This document shows, in pieces, positions 631 through 17,612 of a stretch of DNA of 20,267 nucleotides (the stretch's first letter is position 1; each line of letters starts with the position of its first letter). This DNA comes from a virus: the IMG/VR virus record IMGVR_UViG_3300013137_000136, positions 1-20,267 of that record, one strand, 5' to 3'. Position numbers and translations under genes: made by a program. The notes under the pieces were generated by a model that was not told the DNA's origin, ran no database searches, and saw only the letters and a list, made by a program, of their open reading frames with translations.

Positions 631-1107
631 ATGAAGATTTATAAAACGCAACAAGAAGTAGAAAAAGATATTGTAAACGGAGTATTGGCGATTGAGGGTG
701 ATGTAAGGTTTGAGTGTTCAATAAGTATATCAGCTTCAATTAAAGTAACTTGTGGGAATATCACCGCTGGGGACATCACCGCCAGGGACATCAACGCTGG
801 GAATATCACCGCTGTGGACATCAACGCTGGGGACATCAACGCTGGGGACATCAACGCTGGGAATATCAACGCTGGGAATATCAACGCTGGGGACATCAAC
901 GCTTGGAATATCAACGCTGGGAACATACTGTATTATGCTTTCTGTTGTGTGTATAATTTTATAAAATGCAAAAGCATAAAAGCAAAACGGAAAATTTATA
1001 GTGAACCGATTTGCCTTGAAGGAAAGGTTGAGATTATCTCAACACAAGAAAATAAAAACCCGAAAGAGATAATTGTTAATAACGCTAAATATAGATTGGT
1101 GGAATAA
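631..1107 (+). CDS. Pentapeptide-like tandem repeat protein
   Basis: A 158-residue protein of unknown function. Residues 1-41 form an ordinary N-terminal region. Residues about 42-98 consist of five-residue repeats of the form G-(D/N)-I-(N/T)-A. A C-terminal region rich in Cys, Lys and Tyr follows, containing KCKSIKAKRK. The regular Ile every fifth residue suggests a right-handed beta-helix like that of pentapeptide repeat proteins, although the pattern is not the canonical A(D/N)LXX. I recall similar GDINAG-type proteins in metagenomic phage and bacterial genomes, none with a known role. It starts 11 bases after the methylase stop, behind a GGGAGGGGAG SD. Pentapeptide repeat proteins can mimic DNA in shape, but nothing here shows that. 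Confidence 0.75.
   Translation: MKIYKTQQEVEKDIVNGVLAIEGDVRFECSISISASIKVTCGNITAGDITARDINAGNITAVDINAGDINAGDINAGNINAGNINAGDINAWNINAGNILYYAFCCVYNFIKCKSIKAKRKIYSEPICLEGKVEIISTQENKNPKEIIVNNAKYRLVE
754..927 (+). repeat. Eleven 15-bp tandem repeats plus a partial unit inside the repeat protein gene
   Basis: Units start every 15 bases from 754 to 904, with a 9-base partial unit from 919. They fall into two main types, GGGGACATCAACGCT and GGGAATATCAACGCT, with a few changes (ACC for AAC; first bases AGG, GTG or TGG). Because the unit is a multiple of three and lacks stops, several other frames are also open across it. Near-identical codons in most units suggest recent expansion by slippage or unequal recombination. 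Confidence 0.95.
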
Positions 1108-2248: not shown

Positions 2249-4327
2249 ATGCTTGATATAATTCAGCAATATGTTCAGCAAGGTTTTCGAGTTTTTCCTT
2301 TGCGCGGTAAAAAGCCGGCGGTTAAAGAGGGAGAAGACTGGAAATTAATTCCAAAAGACCCGACCCTTTCCCGGAGTGATATCCCCAAGAATTTTGGGGT
2401 GCATACGGAGAACCGGCTTGTAATTGATATTGATATCAAAGACGGGGCCAAAGGGAAAGAAAGTTTTGCCCAGCTCTGTGGGGATCTAAAACTCGAAAAA
2501 GGGTGGGAGAGTAAAACTTTTGTGGTCAAGACAGGTTCCGGTGGTTTTCATATATACCTTAACTTCCCTCTAGGTGTGGAGACTTCACTTTACCTTAAAG
2601 AATACCCAGGTTTAGAATTTCGTCACGGGCCTTTTTATGTGGTGGGGGCAGAAAGCATCCATCCAGATACAAAGAAGCGGTATGAAGTAGTCTTCGGCTC
2701 TTTAAATGCCCTTCTGGACGCGCCAGGGGCTCTTGTAGCCCGGATCGTCAAGCAAGAAAGGGTAGCTATCGGCCCGGCCCCAGAACCGGGGTTTGTAGAT
2801 GATGACGCGTTAAATATCGAACGATTTAAAGAATCTCTTTCCGGGATGCCAGAGGCTACAACAGGGGCCCGTAGAAATTCTCTTTATGTAGCTGCTTGTC
2901 GCGGCCGGGATTTTGGGCTGTCTGAATGCACTTGTCTTCAAACATTGAAAGAGTCGTACCTTCCCCAAAAGATCTCCCCAGCCCTTTCTGACCCAGATAT
3001 TGAACACACGGTCCGCTCTGCTTATACTTATGCTAAAGAAAAAGCCGGCCACTTGAATGTTGGCGCGATTTTTAAAGTGGCTGAAGTAGGCGAAAAAATA
3101 AATTTTGGGGACGTTAAATACGATCTAACCGCAAAAGGCGCGATAAAACCATCCCTCAACAACGCTGTGAACTACTTAGTAACACTACCAAAAATTCAAG
3201 ATGCCTTCCGGTATAACACTTTTTCCGGGATGATAGAAATAAATTCAAGCGCACCGTGGTATAAAGAACGCGGGGCTAAGGGGCCCAATCTTTGCGACGA
3301 AGATGTTGTGTTATTGAAGTTTTTCTTGGCGAAAACGATTAGCATAGAATTTTCCCAGCAAACAGTTTTAGAGGCAGTTATAGTTGTGGCGCATAAAAGG
3401 CATTATCATCCTATTAGAAATTATCTTCAATCTCTTGTCTGGGACCAAATTCCGAGGCTTAACAATTGGCTAACCGTTTTTGGCCACGCGATAGATACCT
3501 CGTACACCCGGGCTATTGCGCGAAAGACTCTTTGCGCGGCGGTGAAACGTGTTATGGAGCCTGGGTGTAAGTGGGATCACGTACTTATTATCGAAGGAGA
3601 TCAGGGAATCGGGAAAAGTACAGCTTGCCGTATCCTCGGCAGAAATTGGGGCGGGGATATGAATTTGGACCCTCACGCTAAAGACGCGATTCATATGATG
3701 TTAAGTAAATGGGTAATAGAGCTCTCCGAAATGACCGCGCTTCGCTGGCACGACGCAAACAGCCTTAAATCTTTTATCACCCGGGAAAAAGATACCGTCC
3801 GCTTGTCTTACGAACGCCACGCAAAAGACTTTCCTCGTCAAAGTATTTTCATAGGAACGGTTAACCCGGAACACGTGGGGTATCTCAACGATATTACCGG
3901 AAATAGAAGATACTGGATTACACGATTTAATGGCCCGGTGGACCTTAAAGGCCTTGAAAATAATTGTGACCAGCTTTGGGCGGAAGCTTTTCAATGTTAT
4001 AAAAACGAAATGCTCTATCTCGTAGGCGAGGCGGAACAACTTCAAGTTCTTGAAGCTCAGGCCCGGATGCCGGAAGACCCTATGAGACAAAATGTTGTGC
4101 GTTGGGTTAAGGAGAATCCGGAAGTGAATGAAGTTACAACAGAAGAAATACTTGAATATGTAGGCATACCTATGAAGTCAGTTACCCGGGCTGATCAAAG
4201 CCGTGTAGCCGCAGCGTTAGTGGGGTTACGTTGGGATAAAAAAATCTCTCGAGAGGGTGGGGTATTCAGTACCTCCTATACCCGGCCGATGAGAGAGCAA
4301 ATGAATCAAATAGTGGGAGAGTTATGA
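2249..4327 (+). CDS. Bifunctional primase-polymerase / VirE-family replicative helicase
   Basis: A 692-residue replication protein that should make primers and unwind DNA at the fork. The N-terminal prim-pol domain has the metal-binding acidic pair in VIDIDIKD (D60, D62) and the SGGFHIYL motif (H101) of archaeo-eukaryotic-type primases. A linker with a primase-C-like region spans residues about 185-275. The C-terminal VirE/DUF3987-like P-loop ATPase has Walker A GDQGIGKST at 450-458, then WVIELSEM as the Walker B region, a FIGTVNPEHVGYLNDITGNR sensor stretch and a YWITRF segment. The fused architecture is common in phages and plasmids. The SD is weak (AGGACGAG, 10-14 bases upstream), which contrasts with the strong site of the preceding gene. 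It overlaps the next gene by four bases. Confidence 0.9.
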   Translation: MLDIIQQYVQQGFRVFPLRGKKPAVKEGEDWKLIPKDPTLSRSDIPKNFGVHTENRLVIDIDIKDGAKGKESFAQLCGDLKLEKGWESKTFVVKTGSGGFHIYLNFPLGVETSLYLKEYPGLEFRHGPFYVVGAESIHPDTKKRYEVVFGSLNALLDAPGALVARIVKQERVAIGPAPEPGFVDDDALNIERFKESLSGMPEATTGARRNSLYVAACRGRDFGLSECTCLQTLKESYLPQKISPALSDPDIEHTVRSAYTYAKEKAGHLNVGAIFKVAEVGEKINFGDVKYDLTAKGAIKPSLNNAVNYLVTLPKIQDAFRYNTFSGMIEINSSAPWYKERGAKGPNLCDEDVVLLKFFLAKTISIEFSQQTVLEAVIVVAHKRHYHPIRNYLQSLVWDQIPRLNNWLTVFGHAIDTSYTRAIARKTLCAAVKRVMEPGCKWDHVLIIEGDQGIGKSTACRILGRNWGGDMNLDPHAKDAIHMMLSKWVIELSEMTALRWHDANSLKSFITREKDTVRLSYERHAKDFPRQSIFIGTVNPEHVGYLNDITGNRRYWITRFNGPVDLKGLENNCDQLWAEAFQCYKNEMLYLVGEAEQLQVLEAQARMPEDPMRQNVVRWVKENPEVNEVTTEEILEYVGIPMKSVTRADQSRVAAALVGLRWDKKISREGGVFSTSYTRPMREQMNQIVGEL

Positions 4328-4956
4328 TAAGTAAAGACTGGACAGGAAATAAGAAATCTATTTTTACGACTCTTGGTGCTAGTAACCATTCGGATCACGA
4401 TCGTGAAGTTCACGACTATTACGCTACAGAACCGTCGGCCATTGACGACTTATTTAATGTTGAAAAATTTGCGCCAAAAATTTGGGAACCTGCTTGCGGG
4501 GAAGGGCACTTATCTATACGTATGACGTCTTTGGGGAAGACAGTTTTTTCGTCTGATTTAATTGATAGGGGTTTTGGAAAACCCGGAATAGACTTCTTAA
4601 CAGCGACAGAAGGCTTTACTGGAGATATTATTACGAACCCCCCGTATAAATTTGCGGCAGAATTTGTCGAGCAAGCGTTAAAACTTACATCTAATAAAGT
4701 TGCGATGTTTTTAAAGTTAACTTTTTTAGAAGGACAAGGCCGCCAAAAGTTGTTTGTCAAGAATCCGCCGAAAAAAATCTGGGTATATTCTTTTCGAAAG
4801 AAATGCGCGATGAACGGGCGTTTCTCAGACACCGGCTCTTCTGCTTCGTGTTATGCTTGGTTTATATGGGAGAAGGGTTTTTCTGGTGCGCCAGTTTTAG
4901 GGTGGCTAACACCAATCGAATATCAAAAGCAAACGGTAACTATTGAGGACTTATGA
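4324..4956 (+). CDS. DNA N6-adenine methyltransferase, NPPY type
   Basis: A 210-residue class I methyltransferase. The N-terminal DYYATEPSAI segment is typical of phage adenine methylases. The SAM-binding motif I is EPACGEG at residues 55-61. An acidic loop follows in SSDLIDRG, and the catalytic NPPY lies at 105-108. A late VYSFRKKCAMNGR region followed by YAWFIWEKG matches the usual target-recognition end of this family. It differs from the methylase at 128-619, which carries DPPY and a different motif I. It starts in an ATGA overlap with the primase and ends in one with the TPP enzyme. No restriction enzyme is nearby. A likely role is protection of phage DNA or marking for replication. Confidence 0.85.
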   Translation: MISKDWTGNKKSIFTTLGASNHSDHDREVHDYYATEPSAIDDLFNVEKFAPKIWEPACGEGHLSIRMTSLGKTVFSSDLIDRGFGKPGIDFLTATEGFTGDIITNPPYKFAAEFVEQALKLTSNKVAMFLKLTFLEGQGRQKLFVKNPPKKIWVYSFRKKCAMNGRFSDTGSSASCYAWFIWEKGFSGAPVLGWLTPIEYQKQTVTIEDL

Positions 4957-5564
4957 TAACTAAACAAGAGTTAATAGACTTTGAAGACGATATGCGTATC
5001 CTTTGGGAGAGCGGACAAATCCGTTGCCCCCACCATTTCTGCGGAGGGAATGAAGATATCTTAATTAGTTATTTTCAAAAACATTTCCAACCTGGGGATT
5101 GGGTTTTTTCTACTCACAGGAATACTTACCATTGGCTCTTGGCCACAGGAGACAAAGAATTTTTGAGGAATGAGATATTGAAGCATAATAATTCAATGCA
5201 CATTATCGATCTTTCCCGGCATTTCATCAGTACAGCTATTGTAGGGGGAAACGTCGGTCTTGCGGTAGGAGTCGCAAAAGCGATTAAACTCGCGGGGCAG
5301 AGTAATAAAGTGCATTGTTTTGTCGGTGATGGGGCTTGTGATCAAGGTTGGTTTTGGGAGGCGCTAAGATACGCAATAGGCCACGATCTACCTATCACTT
5401 TCGTTATCGAAAATAATAATCGATCAGTAACGACATCTATCGAACAGCGTTGGGGGGAAAAAGACCGTGAAATGCAAAAACTTTGGGATACCCCAAAGGT
5501 TTTCTATTACCATTATCAAGCAGCTTTTCCGCACGTAGGAACAGGAGTGCAAATTAAATGGTAG
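4953..5564 (+). CDS. Thiamine-diphosphate-dependent enzyme, E1-alpha-like (PP domain) subunit
   Basis: A 203-residue protein related to the alpha chain of 2-oxo acid dehydrogenase E1 and transketolase. The TPP/Mg2+ motif is clear: GDG at residues 125-127 and, after the usual 26-residue gap, the Asn cluster NNN at 154-156. Upstream, FSTHRNTYHWLLATG matches the E1-alpha R-x-H...G region, and SMHIID and VGGNVGLAVGVA match the following family segments. It is much shorter than E1-alpha (usually 320-360 residues). The C-terminal YYHYQAAFPHVGTG segment appears to close the domain, so this is not an obvious truncation. It pairs with the next gene, which supplies the pyrimidine domain. No E2 or E3 gene is present, so an oxidative dehydrogenase complex is unlikely. 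The reaction is unknown; a decarboxylase or C2-transfer step is an inference. Confidence 0.85.
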   Translation: MITKQELIDFEDDMRILWESGQIRCPHHFCGGNEDILISYFQKHFQPGDWVFSTHRNTYHWLLATGDKEFLRNEILKHNNSMHIIDLSRHFISTAIVGGNVGLAVGVAKAIKLAGQSNKVHCFVGDGACDQGWFWEALRYAIGHDLPITFVIENNNRSVTTSIEQRWGEKDREMQKLWDTPKVFYYHYQAAFPHVGTGVQIKW

Positions 5565-6100
5565 AAAAAATCGAGAATAGAGATACTTACAAAGATCTGC
5601 TTCATAAAACAATGTGCGCGTTATCGCTTAATCCTCAAATTCGTTTTGTCGGTTATAATACCGCCTACGGGCATAAAATGAACGGAACGCTTATCGGATG
5701 CGAACATTTATGTATTGAGACACCAGTTGCCGAAAACTTAATGGTCGGGATAGCCACGGGACTTTCATTAGAAGGTTATCTTCCGGTACTTTGTTTTGAA
5801 CGTGCGGATTTCTTACTCGCCGGGATGGACGCCTTAGTTAATCATCTTTCGAATTTACAAAAATACGGCTTAAAAATTCCTATGATTATCCGAGTATGCG
5901 TCGGCCACGATAGCCCGCTTGACCCGGGGACACAGCACGTTCAGGACTACTCGGACGTTTTTGAGAAGCATACGTCTATTCCAGTTGTAAGGCTTACTAA
6001 TTGTCGCGATGTGATGGGCGCGTTTATACATAGAGTAATTGAGCGACCAATAATGTTTGTCGAATACAGGAGGTTATATGATACAATTATCGAAGGGTGA
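5558..6100 (+). CDS. Thiamine-diphosphate-dependent enzyme, E1-beta-like (Pyr domain) subunit
   Basis: A 180-residue protein matching the pyrimidine-binding domain of E1-beta/transketolase. ETPVAENLMVGIATGLSLEG contains the PVAE signature (catalytic Glu at residue 59) that activates the cofactor aminopyrimidine. PVLCFERADFLLAGMD follows, and the chain ends after RPIMFVEYRRLY, exactly where a Transket_pyr domain normally ends. The C-terminal transketolase domain present in normal E1-beta (about 330 residues) is absent. With the preceding subunit it should form a minimal PP+Pyr enzyme, an arrangement also known for two-chain sulfopyruvate decarboxylase. It starts 7 bases before the alpha stop, behind AGGAG. 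The stop lies inside the start region of the first radical SAM gene. Confidence 0.85.
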   Translation: MVEKIENRDTYKDLLHKTMCALSLNPQIRFVGYNTAYGHKMNGTLIGCEHLCIETPVAENLMVGIATGLSLEGYLPVLCFERADFLLAGMDALVNHLSNLQKYGLKIPMIIRVCVGHDSPLDPGTQHVQDYSDVFEKHTSIPVVRLTNCRDVMGAFIHRVIERPIMFVEYRRLYDTIIEG

Positions 6101-6938
6101 AAAGATGAAATTGCCGGATAAATATAATTACATTGGGGTGTTTCTTACTTTTCGTTGCCGGATGGGGTGTAGTTATTGTATTAATCGGCACGGGGATTTC
6201 GCGCCGCGTAGAGAAATATCTGTCAGTGAATGGGTAAAAATTCTTTCTGCTATTCCTACCCGGAACGATTTACCTATCAGTCTTCAGGGTGGCGAACCAA
6301 CTGAATACCCGGACTTCTACGATCTGGTAAAAGAACTTCATCTTCGCGGAAAGAAGATCGATCTTCTGACCAATGGCTGTTTCGACGTTAAAGAGTTTAT
6401 CTACCGCACAGAGCCAAAAATGTTTAAACGTTGTGCCCCGTATGCGTCGATTAGATTTTCGTTTCATCAAAAAACTAACGGGATTACGCTACTCAAAACT
6501 GTACAAGCATTGAAGAAAGAGGGGTACAGTGTTGGTATCTGGGGCCTGGATCATCCAGATATGAAGTTAAAAAACTCTATGATGCAAAATGCTTGCGACA
6601 GTGTAGGAATAGATTTTCGAATGAAAGAATTTCTCGACGCTACACACGGGACTTATAAATACCCCAAAGCAGTATCTGGCCAGAGGCAGAGAAAAGCAGT
6701 TTGGTGTTATCCGAGCGAACTTCTTTTTGCTCCTAATGGCGAAGTATTCCCTTGCCACCATTTTCTTTATTCCAATAGCCGGCCATTTGCAGCCGCTAAG
6801 AATACAGATAGCCGAAGCTACCGGGTTTGTATGTGCCACGATTTTGGCCTTTGTAATCCGTGTGACGTGAAATTAAAAACCAATCGTCTTCAACAAGGTG
6901 GTCATTGCAGCGTAAAAATAGAGGAGGTAACAAAATGA
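6078..6938 (+). CDS. Radical SAM protein with SPASM-like C-terminus (first of two)
   Basis: About 286 residues. The canonical C-x3-C-x2-C motif CRMGCSYC (Cys 27, 31, 34) binds the SAM-cleaving 4Fe-4S cluster. Further radical SAM barrel segments are LQGGEPTEYPD (GGEP) and LLTNG. The C-terminus has seven cysteines: CYPSELLFAPNGEVFPC fits C-x10-G-x4-C of SPASM domains, followed by CMCHDFGLCNPC and a final GGHC. An auxiliary iron-sulfur cluster is therefore likely. Start choice is uncertain: ATG 6078 has AGGAGG but only 4 bases of spacing, while ATG 6105 has a weaker GGTGA site and would give 277 residues. The end overlaps the next gene (ATGA). The substrate is unknown. Its position between a TPP enzyme and glycosyltransferase genes suggests sugar or small-molecule chemistry rather than peptide maturation, and no precursor peptide gene is visible. 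Confidence 0.88.
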   Translation: MIQLSKGEKMKLPDKYNYIGVFLTFRCRMGCSYCINRHGDFAPRREISVSEWVKILSAIPTRNDLPISLQGGEPTEYPDFYDLVKELHLRGKKIDLLTNGCFDVKEFIYRTEPKMFKRCAPYASIRFSFHQKTNGITLLKTVQALKKEGYSVGIWGLDHPDMKLKNSMMQNACDSVGIDFRMKEFLDATHGTYKYPKAVSGQRQRKAVWCYPSELLFAPNGEVFPCHHFLYSNSRPFAAAKNTDSRSYRVCMCHDFGLCNPCDVKLKTNRLQQGGHCSVKIEEVTK

Positions 6939-8014
6939 ACGTGAAGGATATTGACAAATGGAATTTAGATAGCAACAAGTTGCTCTGGCATATGGATCGT
7001 GTGTATAAACACTTCGTTCAAGGGAAACGAATCGCGCCAATTATGATCGATGCTGGAATTACTAAGTTGTGTAATATTAAATGCGAGTATTGCTATGGTA
7101 TCTTTCAAAAGATGACTGGAGAAATGATTCCTGATGCTGCACTTATCCAGCTTTTTAAAGAGGCCCCAAAATGCGGAGTAAAAGCTATCTCTATTGTCGG
7201 GGACGGTGAGCCTACTCTACATCCAAGTTTGATCCCGGCTATCCGTGCAGGTGTTGACAGTGGACTCGATATGGCGATGGCCACTAATGGCGTTCGGATT
7301 TCCGATTTAGATATGGCTGATTTTGTTAATAACCTTGTCTGGCTGCGTTTTAATCTTTCGGCTATCGAAGAAGGGTACGAAGTCGTTCACGGCCGGCCGT
7401 ATTGGGAAGGAGTGAAACGAAACATCCAGTTAGCCGTCCAAATGAAAAAGCAGCTTGGTTCTCCCGTGACTATCGGACTTCAGATGGTGCTAACAAAGAA
7501 CGCACTCCCATACGTTTTGCGGGAAGCTCAATTCGCTATCGATACCGGGGTAGATTATTTTGTAATTAAGCAATGCTCGGATCCTAAATACAATGCTATG
7601 GAGGTCCCGGAAAGCCCGTGGTTTGACGAGCCAAAAATCAAAGAAACACTTAGACAGGCTGCGGCGATGAGTACCTTTGAAACTCGGATAGTCCCTAAAT
7701 TTCGGATGATTGCTCAACGTGTCCGAAGACCTTATGATCATTGTCTTGACGTGCCTTTACTTTTCCAAATTTCTGGCGATGGGAAGTGTTACCCTTGCGG
7801 GTATTTATTTGGTAACGAAAGGTATTGCTATGGCGATTTGGCAAAACAGTCTTTGGGAGAAATTCTAAATTCTGAACATTACTGGAAAATTATCGGGTAT
7901 CTGCAAAAGGAATTTGACGTGCATAAAGATTGTGAGGGCTGCTGCCGTCACGATAGCACAAATAAATTTATCCACGATTTTGTGCATAAACCCGAACATA
8001 TTAACTTTATATGA
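6935..8014 (+). CDS. Radical SAM protein with SPASM-like C-terminus (second of two)
   Basis: A 359-residue radical SAM enzyme. The cluster motif is CNIKCEYC (Cys 46, 50, 53), followed by VGDGEPTLHPSL (GDGEPT at 89-94), a variant of the GGEP motif, and MATNGV. In the C-terminal part, CLDVPLLFQISGDGKCYPC fits C-x12-G-x4-C, followed by RYCYGDL and DCEGCC, consistent with a SPASM/Twitch auxiliary cluster. The start at 6935 overlaps the preceding stop (ATGA) and has GAGGAGG about 8 bases upstream. It is not a simple duplicate of the preceding protein: length and motif details differ. The two enzymes are likely co-expressed and may act in sequence. Substrate unknown. Confidence 0.88.
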   Translation: MNVKDIDKWNLDSNKLLWHMDRVYKHFVQGKRIAPIMIDAGITKLCNIKCEYCYGIFQKMTGEMIPDAALIQLFKEAPKCGVKAISIVGDGEPTLHPSLIPAIRAGVDSGLDMAMATNGVRISDLDMADFVNNLVWLRFNLSAIEEGYEVVHGRPYWEGVKRNIQLAVQMKKQLGSPVTIGLQMVLTKNALPYVLREAQFAIDTGVDYFVIKQCSDPKYNAMEVPESPWFDEPKIKETLRQAAAMSTFETRIVPKFRMIAQRVRRPYDHCLDVPLLFQISGDGKCYPCGYLFGNERYCYGDLAKQSLGEILNSEHYWKIIGYLQKEFDVHKDCEGCCRHDSTNKFIHDFVHKPEHINFI

Positions 8015-8037
8015 AAAATAGGAAAGGCGGGTAACTG

Positions 8038-8481
8038 ATGGGGAGAAATCTTTTTGTAATGAGTTTTGGAGAATTTATTGATAAGATGTGTGTTGTGTCT
8101 AAAAAAGCGCTTTGCAAGTTACCCGGGGCACAACAAGAATTGGATTTAATGCTCGAGGATTGCAAAAATGCGGGGATAGACGGAGAATTCATTTTGGCCA
8201 TTATCCGTCTCGCTCAAACAAATTTATCTATTTGGGATTTAGAGCATAGCGTCCGGAACGCCGCAGAGGGGTCTATTCCTCTGTCTGAAGTCGGCCGTAG
8301 AGCTATTATGATACGCAACACAAATAAAACCCGGATAGAGAATAAGAATATTCTTGATCAGGGAAACCGGGTGGAGGAAAAGGTTAAGCACCTTTCAGAA
8401 GATACTTATGATAAATTTTATAAAGCCATTGGGGTTGTGTATGTGGCTCAAACCAGAGAAGAAGGAGGGCCAGGTGAATAA
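8038..8481 (+). CDS. Small helical protein, distantly like a glycosyltransferase-associated family (DUF6165-like)
   Basis: A 147-residue, probably all-helical protein. FGEFIDKMCVVSKKAL, then LAQTNLSIWDLEHSVRN and IPLSEVGRRAIMIRNTNKTR, follow a pattern I associate with small proteins encoded next to surface-glycan glycosyltransferases: G-E-x-x-D-K..., N-x-x-(I/L)-W-x-x-E-x-x-(V/I)-R, then N-x-x-R. The match is by eye and weak. ATG 8038 follows AGGAAAGGCGGG; an in-frame ATG at 8059 is an alternative. The end overlaps the next gene by 8 bases. It contributes to the view that genes 4953-9966 form one glycan-related block. Confidence 0.5.
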   Translation: MGRNLFVMSFGEFIDKMCVVSKKALCKLPGAQQELDLMLEDCKNAGIDGEFILAIIRLAQTNLSIWDLEHSVRNAAEGSIPLSEVGRRAIMIRNTNKTRIENKNILDQGNRVEEKVKHLSEDTYDKFYKAIGVVYVAQTREEGGPGE

Positions 8482-9253
8482 TAAGGAAGAAATAAAAGTT
8501 CTCATAGGATGCCCTACGTTTGGGATCGACCCTGACCCGCGTAGGTTTATGAATTCTTTATTGACAACGGTCAATGATCTTCACAGGGCTGGGGCAAAGA
8601 CGTCGTATTTTTTCCCCTATCGGCGCCGAGTGCAAGATGCGGACAATGAAATTATTCAACGCGCGTTGATGAATGGGTTTACCCATATTCTTCGGATGGA
8701 CGATGATATTTGGGGTGTTGAAAAAGGCGATATATTGCGCTTACTTGAGGCAGATAAAGAGTTTATTTCCGCTGTTACTTATACAGCCGGGTTTCCTTAC
8801 GCTAAATTTGCTTGCCGAAAGAAACCTGGAGTGAAACTATCTCTTCAGGAAATTGGAAAAATGAAAGGTGATTTTCTTGACGAAACTACGGGAGAAGGAG
8901 TCCAAACAACGGACCTTACAGCTACTCCGTATACTCTTTGGAAGTCTTCGTTGTTTCAAAAAATTCTCTACCCGTTTTTTGACCCCAAACTCCCAGGGCC
9001 TCCGGATGCTATTTTTTGTGATAAATGTTTAGCCGCCGGGATCCAACCATTCGTCCATATGGATGTACAGCTGAATCACCGGAATGTCACTCCGTGGAAT
9101 CGAATATACTTGTACAATGCAGAGATCCGTCAAGCATTATATAAGAAACGTATTGATCCTACTGAACCCGGGTATAAAGAACTCGTGGAAGAGTTCGGAG
9201 AAGACGGCCAAAAAGATTTACTCACGCTCAAAGGCATAGAAAGGATAAAATGA
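8474..9253 (+). CDS. Glycosyltransferase-like protein (GT-A fold)
   Basis: A 259-residue protein with a nucleotide-sugar transferase look. An N-terminal beta strand, VLIGCPTFG, is followed by helix and strand alternation. The DxD-type metal motif is at RMDDDIWG (D76-D78), which would bind the Mg/Mn of a UDP- or GDP-sugar. Downstream are FISAVTYTAGFPYAKF and a C-terminal VHMDVQLNHRN segment that may carry a catalytic acid or a metal-binding His. I chose GTG at 8474 because GAAGGAGG lies 6 bases upstream; the frame is open further upstream but has no such site. It overlaps both neighbours. Donor and acceptor are unknown. Confidence 0.68.
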   Translation: MNNKEEIKVLIGCPTFGIDPDPRRFMNSLLTTVNDLHRAGAKTSYFFPYRRRVQDADNEIIQRALMNGFTHILRMDDDIWGVEKGDILRLLEADKEFISAVTYTAGFPYAKFACRKKPGVKLSLQEIGKMKGDFLDETTGEGVQTTDLTATPYTLWKSSLFQKILYPFFDPKLPGPPDAIFCDKCLAAGIQPFVHMDVQLNHRNVTPWNRIYLYNAEIRQALYKKRIDPTEPGYKELVEEFGEDGQKDLLTLKGIERIK

Positions 9254-9966
9254 ATAATGAAGTAAGCGTTCTTACAATTTGCCCTTCTCGAGGAAGACCG
9301 GAGGTACTAAGGAGTATGATCCAATCTTTTCGGGAAACCGCGTCACCGGGAAATTTTTTGGTAGTTTATTTGAATGACGACGATCCGAAACTCTCGGAAT
9401 ACCAGAAGATAGAAGTACCTGAAAATTGTAATATTTTCGTGGGCCCGCGTAAATTCATCGCGGAAGTCTACAACGAATTTTCTTGGAGATCGCAAGCGAA
9501 GTATTTCGCCCCCGTAAACGACGATCATTATTTTCACACTCGATTTTGGGACCAAAAACTCATTGGCATACTCGAGCAAAAGGGACAAGGGTGGGGTATT
9601 GCGATGGCCGACGACCTTCTAAGCGACTGGTCTCGGTATTTACACCCGTCAGGCTGTATTGTTTCTGGAAAGATGGCGCGGGAATTAGGATATATGATTT
9701 ACCCAAAAATTCAGCATATCGGGATTGACGTGATGCTGATGAAACTCTGTAAAGGGATTAACCGACTTTTCTCGACAAGAGAAATAATTATCGAACATCG
9801 TCACTGGATTAATGGGAAGCGAACTATCGACGACAATTATAAGTGGGTGTATAGTGACGCTCAACAAAGCTATGGTGATGCGGCTGTGAAAGAATATATG
9901 CTCGAGCACTACGAAAATGACGTTAAGAAACTTCTTGACGCAATCGCGAAAGAATCGAACAAATGA
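9250..9966 (+). CDS. Glycosyltransferase family 2-like protein
   Basis: A 238-residue protein opening with VSVLTICPSRGRPEVLRSMI, the start of many GT2-type and phage glycosyltransferases. It continues with VVYLNDDDPKL. The putative DxD-like metal site is NDDH at residues 90-93, and MADDLLSDWSRYLHPSGCIV follows. HIGIDVMLMKLCK and IIEHRHWINGKRTIDD form the C-terminal part. It shares the small GT-A plan of the preceding gene but is not obviously a duplicate. It starts in an ATGA overlap at 9250 and ends in another with the SNF2 helicase, which joins the sugar block directly to the replication genes. It may glycosylate a host surface polymer, a phage protein or DNA; the sequence does not decide. 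Confidence 0.72.
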   Translation: MNNEVSVLTICPSRGRPEVLRSMIQSFRETASPGNFLVVYLNDDDPKLSEYQKIEVPENCNIFVGPRKFIAEVYNEFSWRSQAKYFAPVNDDHYFHTRFWDQKLIGILEQKGQGWGIAMADDLLSDWSRYLHPSGCIVSGKMARELGYMIYPKIQHIGIDVMLMKLCKGINRLFSTREIIIEHRHWINGKRTIDDNYKWVYSDAQQSYGDAAVKEYMLEHYENDVKKLLDAIAKESNK

Positions 9967-11381
9967 TAAAGCTTCTTCCTTTTCAGGAAACTGGCCGGAA
10001 TTTTCTGGCGTTGCGGCCTAACGCTATCCTCGCTGATGATATGGGACTTGGAAAAACCTATCAAGTTATCGAGGCGTGGAAACAACTTGGGCTTTCGTCA
10101 GGAGTAGTGATTTGTCCCCAGAGTATTCGTCGGTCGTGGGTAAAAAGAATCCGGGAGCAAATGCCGTTAGCTTTTATAAAAGAAATTTACTCCCCAAAAA
10201 TCGTACCTGAAATATCAGCATTTAATATTGTCAATTACGATATTGTCTGGAAGGAGCCGTTGATTACTTTATTAAAAGATCAAGACTGGCCGGTATTGGT
10301 TTGTGATGAAAGCCACTACCTCCGAACGATTGAAGCTAAAAGGACCAAGATGGTATTAGGTAAAAAAGGCTTATACAATAACTGTACTCGCCGATGGATG
10401 GTTACTGGCACTCCAGTGCTGAATCGACCGGTTGAATTGTACCCAATTCTCCGCGCGCTATTCCCGCAATTTCTTGGTAAGTACGCAAACTTCTATGATT
10501 ATGCCTACAAATTTTGCGCGGCTTATCAAGGCGATTTCGGATTCGATTGCACTGGAGCCAGTAACCTCCCGGACTTAGCCGACATCTTGCGCCCAATTAT
10601 GTTGCGGCGACTAAAATCAGAAGTTCAAAAAGAACTTCCGATGGTCACTTATGATAAAATTTATCTCGACCCGTCAGATAAATTGCTCGCGCTTACTCAA
10701 CAAGAAAATCGTGCGGTAAACGCCCGGGACCAGATAGGCGAAATACCATCAATCCGTCGAGCTTTAGGAATTCTGAAAACTTCTGCCGCGATCCGCCATA
10801 TTAAAGATCTCTTAGAAGAGAAGCAAAAGATAGTCGTCTTCGTCTGGCACGAAGATGTAGTAAAGACTATCACCGCGGCATTTCCCGAAGCGGCTGTGGT
10901 TTATACAGGAAAATGCAGCGCGAGAGAGAAAGACACAGCACTTTCGGATTTTTGTACTAAGAAGGAGAAGAAGATTTTTCTGGCTAATATCCAATCTGGG
11001 GGAATAGGCGTCGACGGCCTTCAACACGTTTGTGATACCGCCGTATTTGTGGAAATGTCGTATGTCCCAGAGGAAATTCGTCAAGCGGTTGGGCGGCTGG
11101 ATCGAATCGGACAAAAAAATCCAGTACAAATTCAATTCTTAATCGCAGAAAACAGTGTTGATGAGAAAGTAGTTAATATGCTTATCGAGAAAGCAAAAAA
11201 CATAAACATAATAACAGGAGATAACGAGAGGAGGAAGATAAATGAGTTAAACGAGACGACAGAGTTTGTGGCAACAAGATGTAAAGTCTGCGGGAAAACA
11301 ACGGAAATGAAAAAGCTTAAACGGGTAGCAGGATTATCCGTCTGCGATAATTGCAGGAAAAATATGGAGTGTTTATTATGA
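9963..11381 (+). CDS. SNF2-family DNA helicase/translocase (phage type)
   Basis: A 472-residue superfamily 2 ATPase. Walker A is DDMGLGKT at residues 25-32, Walker B is DESH at 115-118 and motif III is TGTPVLNR. In the second RecA domain, QSGGIGVDGLQ and the arginine-finger motif VI QAVGRLDRIGQ (374-384) are complete. The chain ends in a four-cysteine zinc knuckle: C440-x2-C443 and C461-x2-C464. Phage SNF2 proteins are common in replication modules with DUF2800, Enc34-type SSB and family A polymerase, as here, and probably remodel or restart forks. It overlaps both neighbours by four bases. Confidence 0.93.
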   Translation: MIKLLPFQETGRNFLALRPNAILADDMGLGKTYQVIEAWKQLGLSSGVVICPQSIRRSWVKRIREQMPLAFIKEIYSPKIVPEISAFNIVNYDIVWKEPLITLLKDQDWPVLVCDESHYLRTIEAKRTKMVLGKKGLYNNCTRRWMVTGTPVLNRPVELYPILRALFPQFLGKYANFYDYAYKFCAAYQGDFGFDCTGASNLPDLADILRPIMLRRLKSEVQKELPMVTYDKIYLDPSDKLLALTQQENRAVNARDQIGEIPSIRRALGILKTSAAIRHIKDLLEEKQKIVVFVWHEDVVKTITAAFPEAAVVYTGKCSAREKDTALSDFCTKKEKKIFLANIQSGGIGVDGLQHVCDTAVFVEMSYVPEEIRQAVGRLDRIGQKNPVQIQFLIAENSVDEKVVNMLIEKAKNINIITGDNERRKINELNETTEFVATRCKVCGKTTEMKKLKRVAGLSVCDNCRKNMECLL

Positions 11382-13579: not shown

Positions 13580-15469
13580 ATGCCTAAAAAAGTATATATC
13601 GATTTTGAAAGCCGCTCTCAAGCGGATATCTGGACAACCGGGGCCTACCACTACGCGGAAGACCCAAGCACCGAAGTCCTTTGTCTTGCGTGGGCTATTG
13701 ACGATGGGCCAGTGCAAGGCGTGTTATATGGTAAACTATCTGAGGCGGCTCAGATAATTAACCAACTCATAAAGTCCGGGGCTGAATTCCACGCCCATAA
13801 TGCTTATTTTGAACGTTCAATTTGGAAATTTCACGCTGAGAAATTTGGGCTACTCCCTATCCCTATCCGGCAGTGGCGGTGTACTGCGGCAAAAGTTTCC
13901 GCGGCTGCGCTTCCAAGAAGACTTGAGCACGCCGCACAAGCCCTGGGTTGCTCTCATCAAAAGGATATGGAGGGCTCCCGGGTAATGCGGTCATTATGTA
14001 CAACTACCGGTCCTATCCCACAAGAAAAACTTGAACGGCTATTACTTTATTGCAAACGGGATGTGGAGACTGAACGAGATATTGACAAACGACTTCCAGA
14101 TCTATCATCTTCCGAACAACGTGTTTGGTTTATGGATCAGTACATTAACGACCGGGGAGTGGCAATAGATACTCTCGCGGTAGAAAACGCGATTACATTA
14201 ATAGCTCAAGAAACTAAGGAACGAAACGAAGAACTTTTTCAATTAACAGGAGGACAAGTCAATGCCGGTACAAAACGAGAAGCGATTAAAAATTATCTTG
14301 AAAAACAGGGAGTTAATCTTCCAGATCTTACAAAAGCAACGGTCAAAGAAGCACTTAAAACAGCCTCCGGTGATAACTTCCGTGTCCTTCAACTTAGGCA
14401 GCAGCTATCCCTTACCTCACTTGCTAAGTTCTCTGCGCTTTTTACAGCAGTCTCTCCCGACAGGCGCATTAGAGATCTGCTCATATTCCACGGAGCCGCG
14501 ACTGGCCGTTGGTCTGGGAAACTCGTGCAAATCCAAAATCTCGTTAAAGCATCTATTAAACCAGAAGAGATTACCGAAGCGATTACTTGCCTACGAGTAT
14601 CCCCAGCTGCCTTTGCCCTTTGCTATGATGTCCTTCCAGCACTCTCGTCCTGCATACGAGGAATGTTTATTCCTTCGCAAGGCCAAGAAATGTTCATCAC
14701 CGATTTTGCCGCGATCGAAGCCCGGGTTGTTATGTGGCTTGCAGGTGAAGAAAAAGGGGTCAAACAATTCGCGGATAAAGATAGGGACCCGTCGCTCCCA
14801 GACATCTACGTCCAAATGGCAAAAACCATAAGCCCTACCGCTACCCGGCAATTAGGTAAGCAAGCCATTCTTGGTTGCGGGTATGGGATGGGAAGAGTGA
14901 AGTTCCAAGAGACGTGTGAGAAATACGGAATAGACGTAACCCCCGCACTGGCTGAACGCGCGGTTAACGCTTATCGTACTTCTTTTCCCGCTATACCTCG
15001 CTTCTGGTACGCATTAGAGGACGCAGCTAAAAAGACCGTGTCATCCGGAAAACCGCATACCTGCGGCCGAGTTTCCTGGCGTATCTCCGGTGATTTTCTA
15101 CAAATGGTTCTTCCCTCTGGCCGGTCAATCGTCTATCATCACCCAAAAATCACGGCTGAGGGCAAACTCACTTTTCTCGGGGTAAACAGTATCACTAATA
15201 AATACGAAGTAGAAGAAACCTGGGGAGGTAAATTAGTTGAGAACGCTACTCAAGCAGTCGCCCGCGATCTTATGGTCGAGGCAATGTTTGGCTTGTTCGC
15301 CGCCAAATACCAGATTCTTTTTACAGTCCACGACGAAGTTGTAGCGGAAAAACCGATCGGTGAAGGAGCTGAAAAAGAAGTTGTGGAAATTGTCTGTAAA
15401 ATTCCTTCGTGGGCAACTGGATGCCCAGTTAACGCAGAGTGTAAGAAAACTATGAAGTACCAAAAATGA
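13580..15469 (+). CDS. Family A DNA polymerase with 3'-5' exonuclease (phage type)
   Basis: A 629-residue replicative polymerase. The N-terminal exonuclease begins at once with VYIDFES (D8, E10), and its last motif is in LLYCKRDVETERDID. The polymerase domain shows GRWSGKLVQIQNL, motif A DFAAIEARV (D375), motif B R423-x3-K427 followed by Y435-G436, and motif C HDEV (584-587) with the catalytic Asp. It is shorter than bacterial Pol I because the 5' nuclease domain is missing, as is usual for phage enzymes. The start is fixed because exonuclease motif I lies at residue 8 and the open frame upstream has no ATG, GTG or TTG. Its SD is separated from the start by a hairpin (13549-13572). It overlaps the LicD gene by four bases. 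Confidence 0.95.
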   Translation: MPKKVYIDFESRSQADIWTTGAYHYAEDPSTEVLCLAWAIDDGPVQGVLYGKLSEAAQIINQLIKSGAEFHAHNAYFERSIWKFHAEKFGLLPIPIRQWRCTAAKVSAAALPRRLEHAAQALGCSHQKDMEGSRVMRSLCTTTGPIPQEKLERLLLYCKRDVETERDIDKRLPDLSSSEQRVWFMDQYINDRGVAIDTLAVENAITLIAQETKERNEELFQLTGGQVNAGTKREAIKNYLEKQGVNLPDLTKATVKEALKTASGDNFRVLQLRQQLSLTSLAKFSALFTAVSPDRRIRDLLIFHGAATGRWSGKLVQIQNLVKASIKPEEITEAITCLRVSPAAFALCYDVLPALSSCIRGMFIPSQGQEMFITDFAAIEARVVMWLAGEEKGVKQFADKDRDPSLPDIYVQMAKTISPTATRQLGKQAILGCGYGMGRVKFQETCEKYGIDVTPALAERAVNAYRTSFPAIPRFWYALEDAAKKTVSSGKPHTCGRVSWRISGDFLQMVLPSGRSIVYHHPKITAEGKLTFLGVNSITNKYEVEETWGGKLVENATQAVARDLMVEAMFGLFAAKYQILFTVHDEVVAEKPIGEGAEKEVVEIVCKIPSWATGCPVNAECKKTMKYQK

Positions 15470-16083
15470 TAACTCAATTAACTCGTATTCAATTGCTCTT
15501 CCGCGTAATTGACGTCCTTGAAAAATACAAAGTTCCGTATTGTCTAGTTGAAGGAACCCTTTTAGGAATGACACGGGAAAATGGGTTTATTCCGTGGGAT
15601 AAAGATATCGACATCGGAGTCCGGCACGAAGATTTAATACCGAAGATGGCGCAACTTCAAAAGGTTTTCTCTGCGTATTTTTCTGTGCATATCTTGGATT
15701 TTCCGTACGCATACCCTAGAGAATTTCATTTACGCGCACAAGGGTATCAAATAGATATTATTAACTACGATACCGGAGAATATCACGACCGGCCAGTTCG
15801 GTTTAATGTTATTCACGACCAATACGCCTCGTCCTACCACGCGACGGAATTATTCGACGAGTATAAACCTTTTAAGTTTCTTGGCCGGACACTCTATCTA
15901 CCAAAAGACCCGGAGAGGTACCTGATAGAAACTTATGGACACGAGTGGCATACGCCGCTTAAACCCGGAAACTACATCGCCTACCCGATTATCCCGGGAT
16001 GGTTTGAGAAGCAAAAAGAGATGGACAATATTGCAATACAGAACTGGCATTTAAAGTATAACCCAAATGGAAGCCCAAAATAG
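15466..16083 (+). CDS. LicD-family nucleotidyltransferase-like protein
   Basis: A 205-residue protein of the LicD/fukutin type. EGTLLGMTRENGFIPWDKDI (residues 29-48) followed by DIG is the family signature: the GTLLG loop and the metal-binding D45/D47/D49. A later YLPKDPERYLIETYGHEW stretch matches the usual C-terminal family segment. LicD proteins transfer phosphocholine or related phospho-substituents to sugars of teichoic acids, lipopolysaccharide or glycans. It overlaps the polymerase stop (ATGA), so it is probably translated with it, and stands apart from the other glycan genes (4953-9966), which share the same operon. The transferred group is unknown; no choline or CDP-activation gene is visible. 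Confidence 0.85.
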   Translation: MITQLTRIQLLFRVIDVLEKYKVPYCLVEGTLLGMTRENGFIPWDKDIDIGVRHEDLIPKMAQLQKVFSAYFSVHILDFPYAYPREFHLRAQGYQIDIINYDTGEYHDRPVRFNVIHDQYASSYHATELFDEYKPFKFLGRTLYLPKDPERYLIETYGHEWHTPLKPGNYIAYPIIPGWFEKQKEMDNIAIQNWHLKYNPNGSPK

Positions 16084-16997: not shown

Positions 16998-17274
16998 CCT
17001 CAGCTTGAGTACCTTTAGAGTTTTCTGAATTCGGAAGAACTAACATCGCGTCTGATGCCTCTAACCAAGCCATAGAATAGGCATAATAGTCAGAGACGGA
17101 CAGCACTTCGCCTTCCCTCAACATTAGTTGAAAATGGAAATCAAGCCACGGGCAGAAAGGCGAATACCCCGCCAATAAGACTTCCGTTGCCTTACGCATT
17201 CCCCGGCGCATATTATCAAGTACCGCTACTACATTGTCCGCTGAGTAGGCTCCAGCAATATAAACACGTTTCAT
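16918..17274 (-). CDS. DUF4406-like / nucleoside 2-deoxyribosyltransferase-like protein
   Basis: A 118-residue Rossmann-like protein. It opens with MKRVYIAGAYSADNVVAVLD, the beta1-loop-helix of this family, has SPFCPWLDFHFQLM in the middle and ends with LVLPNSENSKGTQAEVIRAR followed by ELGIPIV. The GTQAE part corresponds to the S-x-G-x-x-x-E active-site region of nucleoside deoxyribosyltransferases. It may act on nucleotides, but many phage members are uncharacterised. The start overlaps the upstream stop (ATGA) and has GGAGG. Its last 80 bases overlap the convergent VRR-NUC gene. Confidence 0.8.
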   Translation of the reverse strand: MKRVYIAGAYSADNVVAVLDNMRRGMRKATEVLLAGYSPFCPWLDFHFQLMLREGEVLSVSDYYAYSMAWLEASDAMLVLPNSENSKGTQAEVIRARELGIPIVESVVELVDAGIRPE

Positions 17275-17612
17275 TCTTCCTCCTTTTTAGCCATAGCGCC
17301 TAGATAATCCGGGCGAAGTTGTTTGGCCTTAGCCATCATAAGCCGGCAAAAAGCGTGGCCTAAGTGGTCGTCTTGTTTATCCCCGGATAGATACGCAAAT
17401 ATATGCACCAAAGCGTGATTAATATGGCTCTCTTCTGAAATTAAACGCCAGTTATCCCGAGCATACTTTGTAGCCCCAAGATGAGTGATATGAGCTAACT
17501 CCATTAACGCCGGAGCGTCTAATAAATGGAATGCACAATCCAACTTCGACTGCATCCCCCCATTTTCACCGGTCTCAATTTCGGCATTCGGGCCGAGTCC
17601 TTTTCTTTCCAT
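17271..17612 (-). CDS. DUF5664 family protein (dATP/dGTP diphosphohydrolase N-terminal-like)
   Basis: A 113-residue helical protein matching phage DUF5664 proteins. Recognisable segments are KLDCAFHLLDAPALMELAHI, THLGATKYARDNWR, and HINHALVHIFAYLSGDKQDD with HLGHAFCRLMMAKAK. The family is named after dATP/dGTP diphosphohydrolase and is MazG/NTPase-like, so a role in adjusting nucleotide pools is plausible. It follows AGGAGG at a suitable spacing and is coupled to the DUF4406-like gene by an ATGA overlap. Together they form a small nucleotide-metabolism pair at the end of the leftward operon. Confidence 0.82.
   Translation of the reverse strand: MERKGLGPNAEIETGENGGMQSKLDCAFHLLDAPALMELAHITHLGATKYARDNWRLISEESHINHALVHIFAYLSGDKQDDHLGHAFCRLMMAKAKQLRPDYLGAMAKKEEE

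What the first reader, a model, noticed from the sequence alone, without database searches (positions are those of the whole stretch)
4953..9966. TPP enzyme, two radical SAM proteins and glycosyltransferases inserted in a phage replication operon
Seen: six or seven metabolic or glycan genes (E1-alpha-like, E1-beta-like, two CxxxCxxC proteins, a small helical protein, two DxD-type transferases) run in one direction. Every join but one is an overlap; the exception is a short gap at 8015-8037. They sit between a methylase and an SNF2 helicase, and a LicD gene follows the polymerase. Known: LicD and GT-A proteins modify surface glycans, and radical SAM and TPP enzymes build unusual sugars and small molecules. 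Inference: the phage encodes a dedicated early pathway to make and attach an unusual group, either to the host envelope (blocking rival phages) or, less likely, to its own DNA. I know of no described phage system with this combination.
Basis: partly seen in the sequence, partly recalled or inferred. Interest (0 to 1): 0.8.

Follow-up and report, generated by a model that had tools for sequence, protein, structure and literature searches.

The report
Phage cassette predicted to modify sugars
A bacterial virus carries a compact set of enzyme genes, found again in other viruses and in bacterial gene clusters, that probably builds an unusual sugar-like group for a surface; what it makes is still untested.

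Summary
Window 4953-9966 encodes, in one direction, a two-subunit thiamine-diphosphate (TPP) enzyme, two radical SAM enzymes, a small helical protein and two GT-A-type transferases. It is not a one-off. In IMG/VR, 44 contigs encode a relative of the first radical SAM; of their 36 clusters below 80% identity, 32 carry a TPP enzyme, 30 a relative of the second radical SAM and 19 the small protein. None of 73 control phage loci has any of these genes. The TPP slot is exchangeable: E1-type (19), split-transketolase-type (11) or acetolactate-synthase-type (2), with 9 type changes on the radical SAM tree. A sister phage has the two transferases but no cassette. Bacterial genomes carry a chromosomal counterpart, mostly beside heptosyltransferase-family and B12-radical SAM genes. 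TPP enzymes of E1 type (AviB1/AviB2) and YerE install two-carbon branches on keto-sugars. Best reading: a mobile cassette that makes a radical-edited, C2-extended sugar, most likely for host-envelope glycans, less likely for the virion or for DNA (thymidylate synthase in 1 of 30 contigs). Product, target and timing are unproven.

The parts
4953..5564 (+). E1a: TPP-binding (PP) domain of a minimal E1-type enzyme, 203 aa
   Evidence: PF00676 68.5 bits, profile 6-171 of 300; phrog_34187 N-terminal half; GDG at 125, NNN at 154; nearest solved proteins are PDH E1 alpha
5558..6100 (+). E1b: pyrimidine (PYR) domain of the same enzyme, 180 aa, without the Transketolase_C domain
   Evidence: PF02779 36.6 bits, no PF02780; phrog_34187 C-terminal half; invariant E59 lies in the stretch aligned with TPLSE of an E1 beta chain
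6078..6938 (+). Radical SAM 1, 286 aa, with conserved C-terminal cysteines
   Evidence: PF04055 46.7 bits; CRMGCSYC; C210, C226, C253, C259, C262 invariant in 8 of 8 aligned rows
6935..8014 (+). Radical SAM 2 with SPASM domain, 359 aa
   Evidence: PF04055 42.8 and PF13186 33.1 bits; CNIKCEYC
8038..8481 (+). Small helical protein, possible remote DUF4254 relative
   Evidence: 17 of 23 aligned members match PF14063 at E<=1, best 4.7e-6, the window copy itself none; helical model, no PDB match at E<=0.001
8474..9253 (+). Transferase 1, GT-A-like fold, DDD at residue 76; also present without the cassette in a sister phage
   Evidence: AlphaFold2 best model pLDDT 81 (other four 68-72); 180 Foldseek matches at E<=0.001, best ColGalT1 3.9e-9, TM by query about 0.4-0.5; L189
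9250..9966 (+). Transferase 2, phage glycosyltransferase family phrog_14945
   Evidence: PHROG E 3.4e-26; tblastn to 71 phage records, 63 of them Streptomyces phages
15466..16083 (+). LicD-type phosphotransferase after PolA; possible partner, not conserved with the cassette
   Evidence: PF04991 61.9 bits; 4 of 30 records; FKRP match 2.8e-5
4324..4956 (+). DNA methylase flanking the cassette; neighbour, not a conserved member
   Evidence: phrog_799; beside the cassette only in the window's own record, L008 and L009 among the 94 loci, and once elsewhere (L031)
9963..11381 (+). SNF2 helicase, replication-module neighbour used as anchor for the control and the empty site
   Evidence: PF00176 101.8 bits

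Best explanation
The unit is a mobile sugar-editing cassette related to bacterial envelope-glycan gene clusters. Shown: the TPP pair keeps its cofactor and catalytic motifs but lacks the C-terminal transketolase domain; no E2 gene was found in 30 records with radical SAM 1; the TPP gene is co-inherited with two radical SAM enzymes; and three kinds of TPP enzyme fill the same slot. Inferred: the TPP enzyme takes a two-carbon unit from a 2-oxo acid such as pyruvate (or from a ketose, in the transketolase-type variant) and transfers it to a keto or aldehyde sugar, free or nucleotide-bound. The radical SAM enzymes oxidise, epimerise, dehydrate or rearrange that sugar; in some phages a B12-radical SAM adds a further step. 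GT-A transferases attach it, most likely to the host's envelope glycan, altering phage receptors during infection. Different TPP types would give different surface groups.
For: Co-inheritance: 32 of 36 dereplicated viral radical-SAM-1 clusters have a TPP enzyme (19 E1, 11 transketolase-type, 2 AHAS-type) and 30 of 36 a radical SAM 2 relative; 0 of 73 control loci. Exchange: 9 TPP-type changes on the radical SAM 1 tree; L095 (the window's type, E1) is sister to L111 (transketolase-type), support 99/85, same slot. Glycan context: the chromosomal counterpart has GT9 in 10 of 14 and B12-radical SAM in 11 of 14 loci, GT2 in L173 by Pfam; E1 relatives lie in nucleotide-sugar islands of cyanophages S-SM2 and P-TIM68 and, as E1b-radical SAM-E1a, in a 735-kb phage. 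E2 family PF00198 in 0 of 30. Chemistry precedent: E1-like AviB1/AviB2 and Plm8/Plm9, and the TPP flavoprotein YerE, for two-carbon branches of sugars (PMC4425429, PMC4802897, PMC4753412; passages); that YerE is of the AHAS kind is recalled.
Against: No product, substrate or phenotype is known. In some phages (L102, L104, L114, L119, L120) the cassette borders replication genes and the record has no match to GT2 family or NAD-epimerase; epimerases are missing in 21 of 30. Other relatives sit near capsid genes: L004 has a radical SAM 2 relative and transferases after the major capsid gene, and 32 of 80 E1a-seeded loci carry a gene family whose tested member matches P22 coat protein; that fits virion glycosylation as well. 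Only 8 of 19 dereplicated E1a clusters carry radical SAM 2 and 6 of 19 radical SAM 1: the E1 family also occurs without them. SPASM enzymes often modify peptides. Pfam was run on ORFs of only 3 of the 12 wide bacterial loci (L173, L177, L179).
Confidence: 0.5

Rival explanations
1. Virion glycosylation: the same sugar is attached to phage tail or capsid proteins rather than to the host.
For: Relatives near capsid genes: L004 and 32 of 80 E1a-seeded loci with a P22-coat-like gene family; transferase 1's closest folds include protein glycosyltransferases such as ColGalT1; pilin genes near the chromosomal counterpart would fit protein glycosylation.
Against: In the window's near-identical record the structural genes lie apart from the cassette. 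Not decisive.
Confidence: 0.17
2. DNA or nucleotide hypermodification: the cassette builds a group that the transferases attach to phage bases, protecting against restriction.
For: Cassette next to replication genes in at least two phage types (window; L104, L110, L119, L120, L121); methylase adjacent in the window; transferase 2 has a weaker PHROG match to a family called DNA methyltransferase.
Against: Thymidylate synthase family in 1 of 30 records (other routes to a modified base were not searched); methylase not conserved; relatives in glycan islands and chromosomal clusters.
Confidence: 0.13
3. Peptide or protein maturation (RiPP-like): SPASM radical SAM enzymes modify the small protein or another peptide.
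For: SPASM enzymes often mature peptides (recalled); a small conserved protein is next door; PDB relatives include SkfB and anaerobic sulfatase-maturating enzyme.
Against: The small protein is a conserved helical domain present in 19 of 36 clusters; PDB relatives also include MoaA, DesII and cytosylglucuronate decarboxylase; a TPP enzyme is not usual there (recalled).
Confidence: 0.08
4. Central-metabolism support: E1a/E1b supplies acetyl units or energy to the infected cell, the rest being unrelated.
For: Sequence similarity to PDH E1.
Against: E2 family in 0 of 30 records, truncated E1, replacement by transketolase- and AHAS-type enzymes beside the same radical SAM genes.
Confidence: 0.05

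Closest known systems
AviB1/AviB2 (avilamycin), Pau11/Pau12 and Plm8/Plm9 (paulomycin): E1-like pairs for two-carbon branches of sugars (PMC4425429, PMC4802897, passages)
   Same: E1 alpha/beta-like pair in a sugar gene cluster
   Different: Pau11 and Pau12 are 325 and 345 aa, the phage pair is minimal (203 and 180 aa); the phage substrate is unknown. Whether those clusters hold radical SAM relatives was not checked
YerE, TPP flavoprotein of yersiniose (PMC4753412, passage)
   Same: A three-domain TPP enzyme also appears in the slot (L131, L132, L177); that YerE has this architecture is recalled
   Different: Whether those three are YerE orthologues was not tested
Chromosomal cluster in the phylum of a Desulfobacterales MAG (L170, L171, L173, L174, L176)
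   Same: Radical SAM 1, radical SAM 2 (not labelled in L174's ORF listing), E1a and E1b together
   Different: Full-length E1 with PF02780 (L173), plus GT2, B12-radical SAM and GT9; no small protein; no description found in the searches made
Phage surface-glycan (LPS) islands, e.g. pelagimyophages (PMC7029224, passages)
   Same: Glycosyltransferases and radical SAM gene cassettes carried by phages
   Different: The term transketolase does not occur in that paper's main text, and the passages seen describe no fixed cassette

Membership tests
2-oxoacid dehydrogenase E1 (PDH type) | PP domain with GDG-x(about 26)-NN and PYR domain with catalytic Glu | tested here: met
2-oxoacid dehydrogenase E1 (PDH type) | Transketolase_C domain in the beta subunit and full-length alpha subunit | tested here: not met
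   PF02780 absent, PF00676 matched 6-171 of 300; both complete in the chromosomal L173 copy
2-oxoacid dehydrogenase E1 (PDH type) | E2 partner encoded with it | tested here: not met
   PF00198 in 0 of 30 records, many of them fragments; host E2 cannot be excluded
Radical SAM superfamily | CxxxCxxC and PF04055 above cut-off | tested here: met
   both proteins
SPASM subfamily (radical SAM 2) | SPASM domain above cut-off | tested here: met
   PF13186 33.1 bits against cut-off 21.5
SPASM subfamily (radical SAM 1) | SPASM domain above cut-off | tested here: not met
   no PF13186 match, although C-terminal cysteines are conserved
C2-branching sugar TPP enzymes (AviB1/B2, YerE) | transfer of a two-carbon unit to a keto-sugar | not testable with these tools
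   needs enzyme assay
DUF4254 (PF14063) | score above the Pfam cut-off | tested here: not met
   0 of 30 records above cut-off; sub-threshold matches; hhalign probability 55.8%, 25 columns
GT-A glycosyltransferases | GT-A fold with DxD-like motif | tested here: met
   transferase 1, (the fold is shared with nucleotidyltransferases, also in the hit list); transferase 2 by PHROG only, fold not predicted
LicD | PF04991 above cut-off | tested here: met
Phage hydroxymethyl-base DNA modification | thymidylate-synthase-family hydroxymethylase | tested here: not met
   1 of 30 records (G017), none in the window's near-identical record G001
Serotype-conversion (gtr) modules | GtrA/GtrB-type flippase and bactoprenol transferase | not tested
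   no search made

The most novel reading that the evidence does not exclude
Phages exchange an interchangeable-warhead cassette: a fixed pair of radical SAM enzymes is combined with any of three kinds of TPP carbon-carbon-bond-forming enzyme, with nine changes of kind on one tree, to make different branched or extended sugars not yet described in viruses, and so to rewrite surface chemistry during infection.
Probability: 0.4. Interest if true: 0.87.

Novelty: new variant of a known kind. Interest (0 to 1): 0.72.

Why it matters
Phage-encoded glycan editing is a known kind of system, usually built of transferases and nucleotide-sugar enzymes. Here the conserved core is TPP chemistry plus radical chemistry, in a unit shared by different phages and bacterial chromosomal clusters. 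If confirmed it gives a new enzymatic route to unusual sugars, makes a class of unexplained phage radical SAM genes testable, and offers bacterial clusters in which to look for the product.

Tried and rejected
Rejected: a one-off insertion (32 of 36 clusters keep a TPP gene); composition as evidence of recent insertion (GC 0.41-0.44 across the cassette, about 0.42-0.47 in neighbouring windows); pyruvate dehydrogenase for energy. Led nowhere: PDB fold search with the small protein; PDB sequence searches with the small protein and transferase 1; small protein and radical SAM 1 against GenBank phages; transferase 1 against transferase 2; tRNA search.

Literature: no paper describing the combination in searches (open PMC library only). 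DUF4254: one paper listed, not read. One search listed 5 of 1,423 papers, none opened. PMC7150976: passages seen, general radical SAM and transferase statements only.

Caution on counts: the raw 59 of 80 E1a loci with radical SAM 2 is inflated by near-copies; dereplicated it is 8 of 19. 80 of 345 E1a loci were kept. Labels E1, transketolase-type and radical SAM 2 are best matches to my own HMMs at E<=1e-3; Pfam confirmed 6 of the 11 transketolase-type viral clusters. The 73 controls are L193-L265; seven closer SNF2 relatives (L186-L192) were left out, of which L190 (7.5 kb) and L189 lack the cassette. Controls average 13 kb, the 44 loci 16 kb. L135 (radical SAM 1 split in two frames) was dropped from the tree, giving 49 rows; L107, L117, L122, L130 and L169 carried no state there.

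On re-check I lowered the best explanation from 0.55 to 0.50 and raised virion glycosylation from 0.12 to 0.17, because the draft had left out the relatives near capsid genes.
Full report
WHAT IS THERE. The window is a 20,267-base virus record. A 42,787-base IMG/VR record (G001) aligns to it in three main pieces at 96.5, 98.6 and 99.8% identity, and 123 bases of the window map to both of its ends, which fits a complete genome; it has terminase, head-tail adaptor, major head and tail matches. The finding's seven genes are real, co-directional and tightly packed; coordinates are in the parts list. E1a matches only positions 6-171 of 300 of PF00676 and E1b only the pyrimidine domain, without PF02780: a minimal TPP enzyme with the GDG...NN and catalytic-Glu motifs intact. 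One PHROG family without assigned function, phrog_34187, spans both halves. Radical SAM 1 has CxxxCxxC and conserved C-terminal cysteines; radical SAM 2 has a SPASM domain. Transferase 1 has no family match, but an AlphaFold2 model (best pLDDT 81, the other four 68-72) matches 180 PDB chains at E<=0.001, mostly glycosyltransferases among the 50 listed, with some nucleotidyltransferases.

IT IS A CONSERVED CASSETTE. An E1a profile finds 345 relatives in IMG/VR, 80 kept; a radical SAM 1 profile finds 44. In the 44, my HMMs find radical SAM 2 in 35, E1a-like genes in 34, E1b-like in 31, the small protein in 23, transferase 2 in 13, transferase 1 in 6 and LicD in 3. Dereplicated at 80% identity of radical SAM 1 there are 36 viral clusters: E1-type TPP in 19, transketolase-type in 11, neither in 6; two of the six (L131, L132) have an acetolactate-synthase-type enzyme instead. 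So 32 of 36 have a TPP enzyme. Of the other four, radical SAM 1 lies within 150 nt of a contig end in L107 and L117 and within 1.4 kb in L130; only L122 lacks a match with about 10 kb on each side (the rest of its 109-kb contig was not searched for TPP genes). Radical SAM 2 relatives are in 30 of 36, the small protein in 19, a B12-binding radical SAM in 10, GT9 in 4 (Pfam identity of the last two). As control, 73 phage loci fetched through distant SNF2 relatives (956 kb) have no match to any of the 13 HMMs.

THE TPP SLOT IS EXCHANGED. Pfam shows transketolase/DXPS-type PP proteins in L188 (same contig as L111), L108, L109, L113, L123 and L129, with PYR partners in the three tested, and three-domain TPP_enzyme N/M/C proteins in L131 and L132, plus a two-ORF version in L177, a bacterial-genome locus that looks prophage-like by eye. 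On a radical SAM 1 tree of 49 rows the TPP type needs 9 changes; L095 (the window's type, E1) and L111 (transketolase-type) are sisters at 99/85. Only 24 of 46 inner branches are starred, so not all nine are secure; starred branches force at least 4 changes for the viral transketolase group. Repeated replacement within one cofactor class argues that a TPP reaction is the constant function.

EMPTY SITE. L189, a contig with the same primase-transferase-SNF2 backbone (SNF2 61% identical), runs primase (ends 4797) straight into transferase 1 (starts 4794), transferase 2 and SNF2, with no methylase between them and no TPP, radical SAM or small-protein match in its 16 kb. The cassette is a discrete unit and the transferases can do without it.

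CELLULAR COUNTERPART. Radical SAM 1 is found at E<=1e-30 in 13 of 395 genomes of the phylum of G033, a Desulfobacterales MAG by its title. Of 14 bacterial loci examined (these 13, as L090 and L169-L180, plus L088 from a Deltaproteobacteria MAG), 10 have E1-type, 2 transketolase-type and 1 AHAS-type TPP genes and 1 (L169, a 9-kb contig) none; 11 have the B12-radical SAM and 10 the GT9 gene. In L173 Pfam shows radical SAM/SPASM, full-length E1 alpha and beta, GT2, B12-radical SAM, GT9, radical SAM 1 and a protein with the pilin N-terminal motif; L170, L171, L174 and L176 look alike, with pilin-like GFTL(V/I)ELL proteins nearby (read by eye). In the 735-kb phage LR756501 the order E1b-radical SAM-E1a lies among many transferase-like ORFs (those ORFs judged by eye). 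In cyanophages P-TIM68 and S-SM2 a fused E1a-E1b lies among annotated epimerases, phosphoheptose isomerases and nucleotidyltransferases. These settings favour glycans.

HOW IT MIGHT WORK. Precedent: E1-like AviB1/AviB2 (avilamycin) and Plm8/Plm9 (paulomycin) are assigned the attachment of a pyruvate-derived two-carbon branch to deoxysugars, and the TPP flavoprotein YerE the same step for yersiniose of O-antigens (passages of PMC4425429, PMC4802897, PMC4753412). That YerE is of the acetolactate-synthase kind, and that transketolases move C2 units, is recalled knowledge. If so, all three kinds in the slot share C2-transfer chemistry; this is the main argument for C2 transfer to a sugar. PDB relatives of radical SAM 2 include enzymes on sugars, nucleotides or aminocyclitols (DesII, cytosylglucuronate decarboxylase, MoaA, BtrN) as well as peptide maturases, so the radical step is open. 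The E2 family was found in 0 of 30 records that carry radical SAM 1, which fits transfer to a non-lipoyl acceptor. In the same 30, GT2 family has matches in 12, NAD-epimerase in 9, LicD in 4, thymidylate synthase in 1; many are fragments, so absences are weak.

RESULTS AGAINST. Five records checked (L102, L104, L114, L119, L120) show neither GT2-family nor epimerase matches, and cassettes of this type border replication genes, which keeps DNA modification and small-molecule products alive. Others sit near capsid genes: in L004 a radical SAM 2 relative (29.8% identity) and annotated transferases follow the major capsid gene, and 32 of the 80 E1a-seeded loci carry a gene family whose tested member matches P22 coat protein, which fits virion glycosylation. 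The E1 family also occurs without radical SAM partners: 8 of 19 dereplicated E1a clusters have radical SAM 2, 6 of 19 radical SAM 1, and 6 of 19 are the fused form with neither; a fused copy, L078, follows a zinc alcohol dehydrogenase. The small protein's link to DUF4254 is weak; its two conserved motifs seem to be in the opposite order in cellular DUF4254 proteins (read by eye).

PRIOR KNOWLEDGE. In 50,697 GenBank phage records radical SAM 1 has 2 matches, both partial at E 7e-4, and the small protein none; E1a matches 8 records: two of the 735-kb phage, duplicate entries of two cyanophages, and two Acinetobacter records, the one viewed showing what looks like a bacterial acetoin operon. Six paper searches found no description of the combination. 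One paper's passages mention radical SAM gene cassettes in the host-recognition region of pelagimyophages (PMC7029224).

VERDICT. A real, conserved, exchangeable phage cassette; most likely sugar or glycan modification (0.50 for the full host-envelope model; glycan chemistry in general is more likely than any one target). Product and target need experiments.

Noticed in passing
window 760-926: Eleven copies of a 15-base tandem repeat inside ORF 631-1107 (protein repeat like GDINAGNINA); the near-identical record G001 aligns there in several registers, which may mean copy-number variation.
   Followed up: partly
L096 2340-2975 (same contig as L009); L010 7141-7659: An extra ORF lies between radical SAM 1 and radical SAM 2; in L096 it matches LAGLIDADG_1 (E 1e-4), so a homing endonuclease seems to invade the cassette. 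The L010 ORF was only read by eye.
   Followed up: partly
L063 9965-14547: One virus contig seems to hold E1-type, AHAS-type and transketolase-type TPP genes side by side (the transketolase label is from a weak E1a match and an HMM row that names no locus).
   Followed up: partly
L131 9024-10010 and L177 13273-14430: Class I/II aminotransferases lie beside the AHAS-type variant of the cassette, hinting at an amino group in that product.
   Followed up: no
L147 3-1577 (record G001): The large terminase ORF begins with a stretch that looks intein-like by eye; its terminase match starts at residue 76.
   Followed up: no
window 17271-17612: dATP/dGTP diphosphohydrolase N-terminal domain (PF18909), a nucleotide-pool enzyme in the same phage.
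   Followed up: no
L266, L267, L268, L270: Cellular DUF4254 genes have a heptosyltransferase-like (GT9) gene in the same 14-kb region in 4 of 5 loci looked at (weak HMM scores in most).
   Followed up: partly
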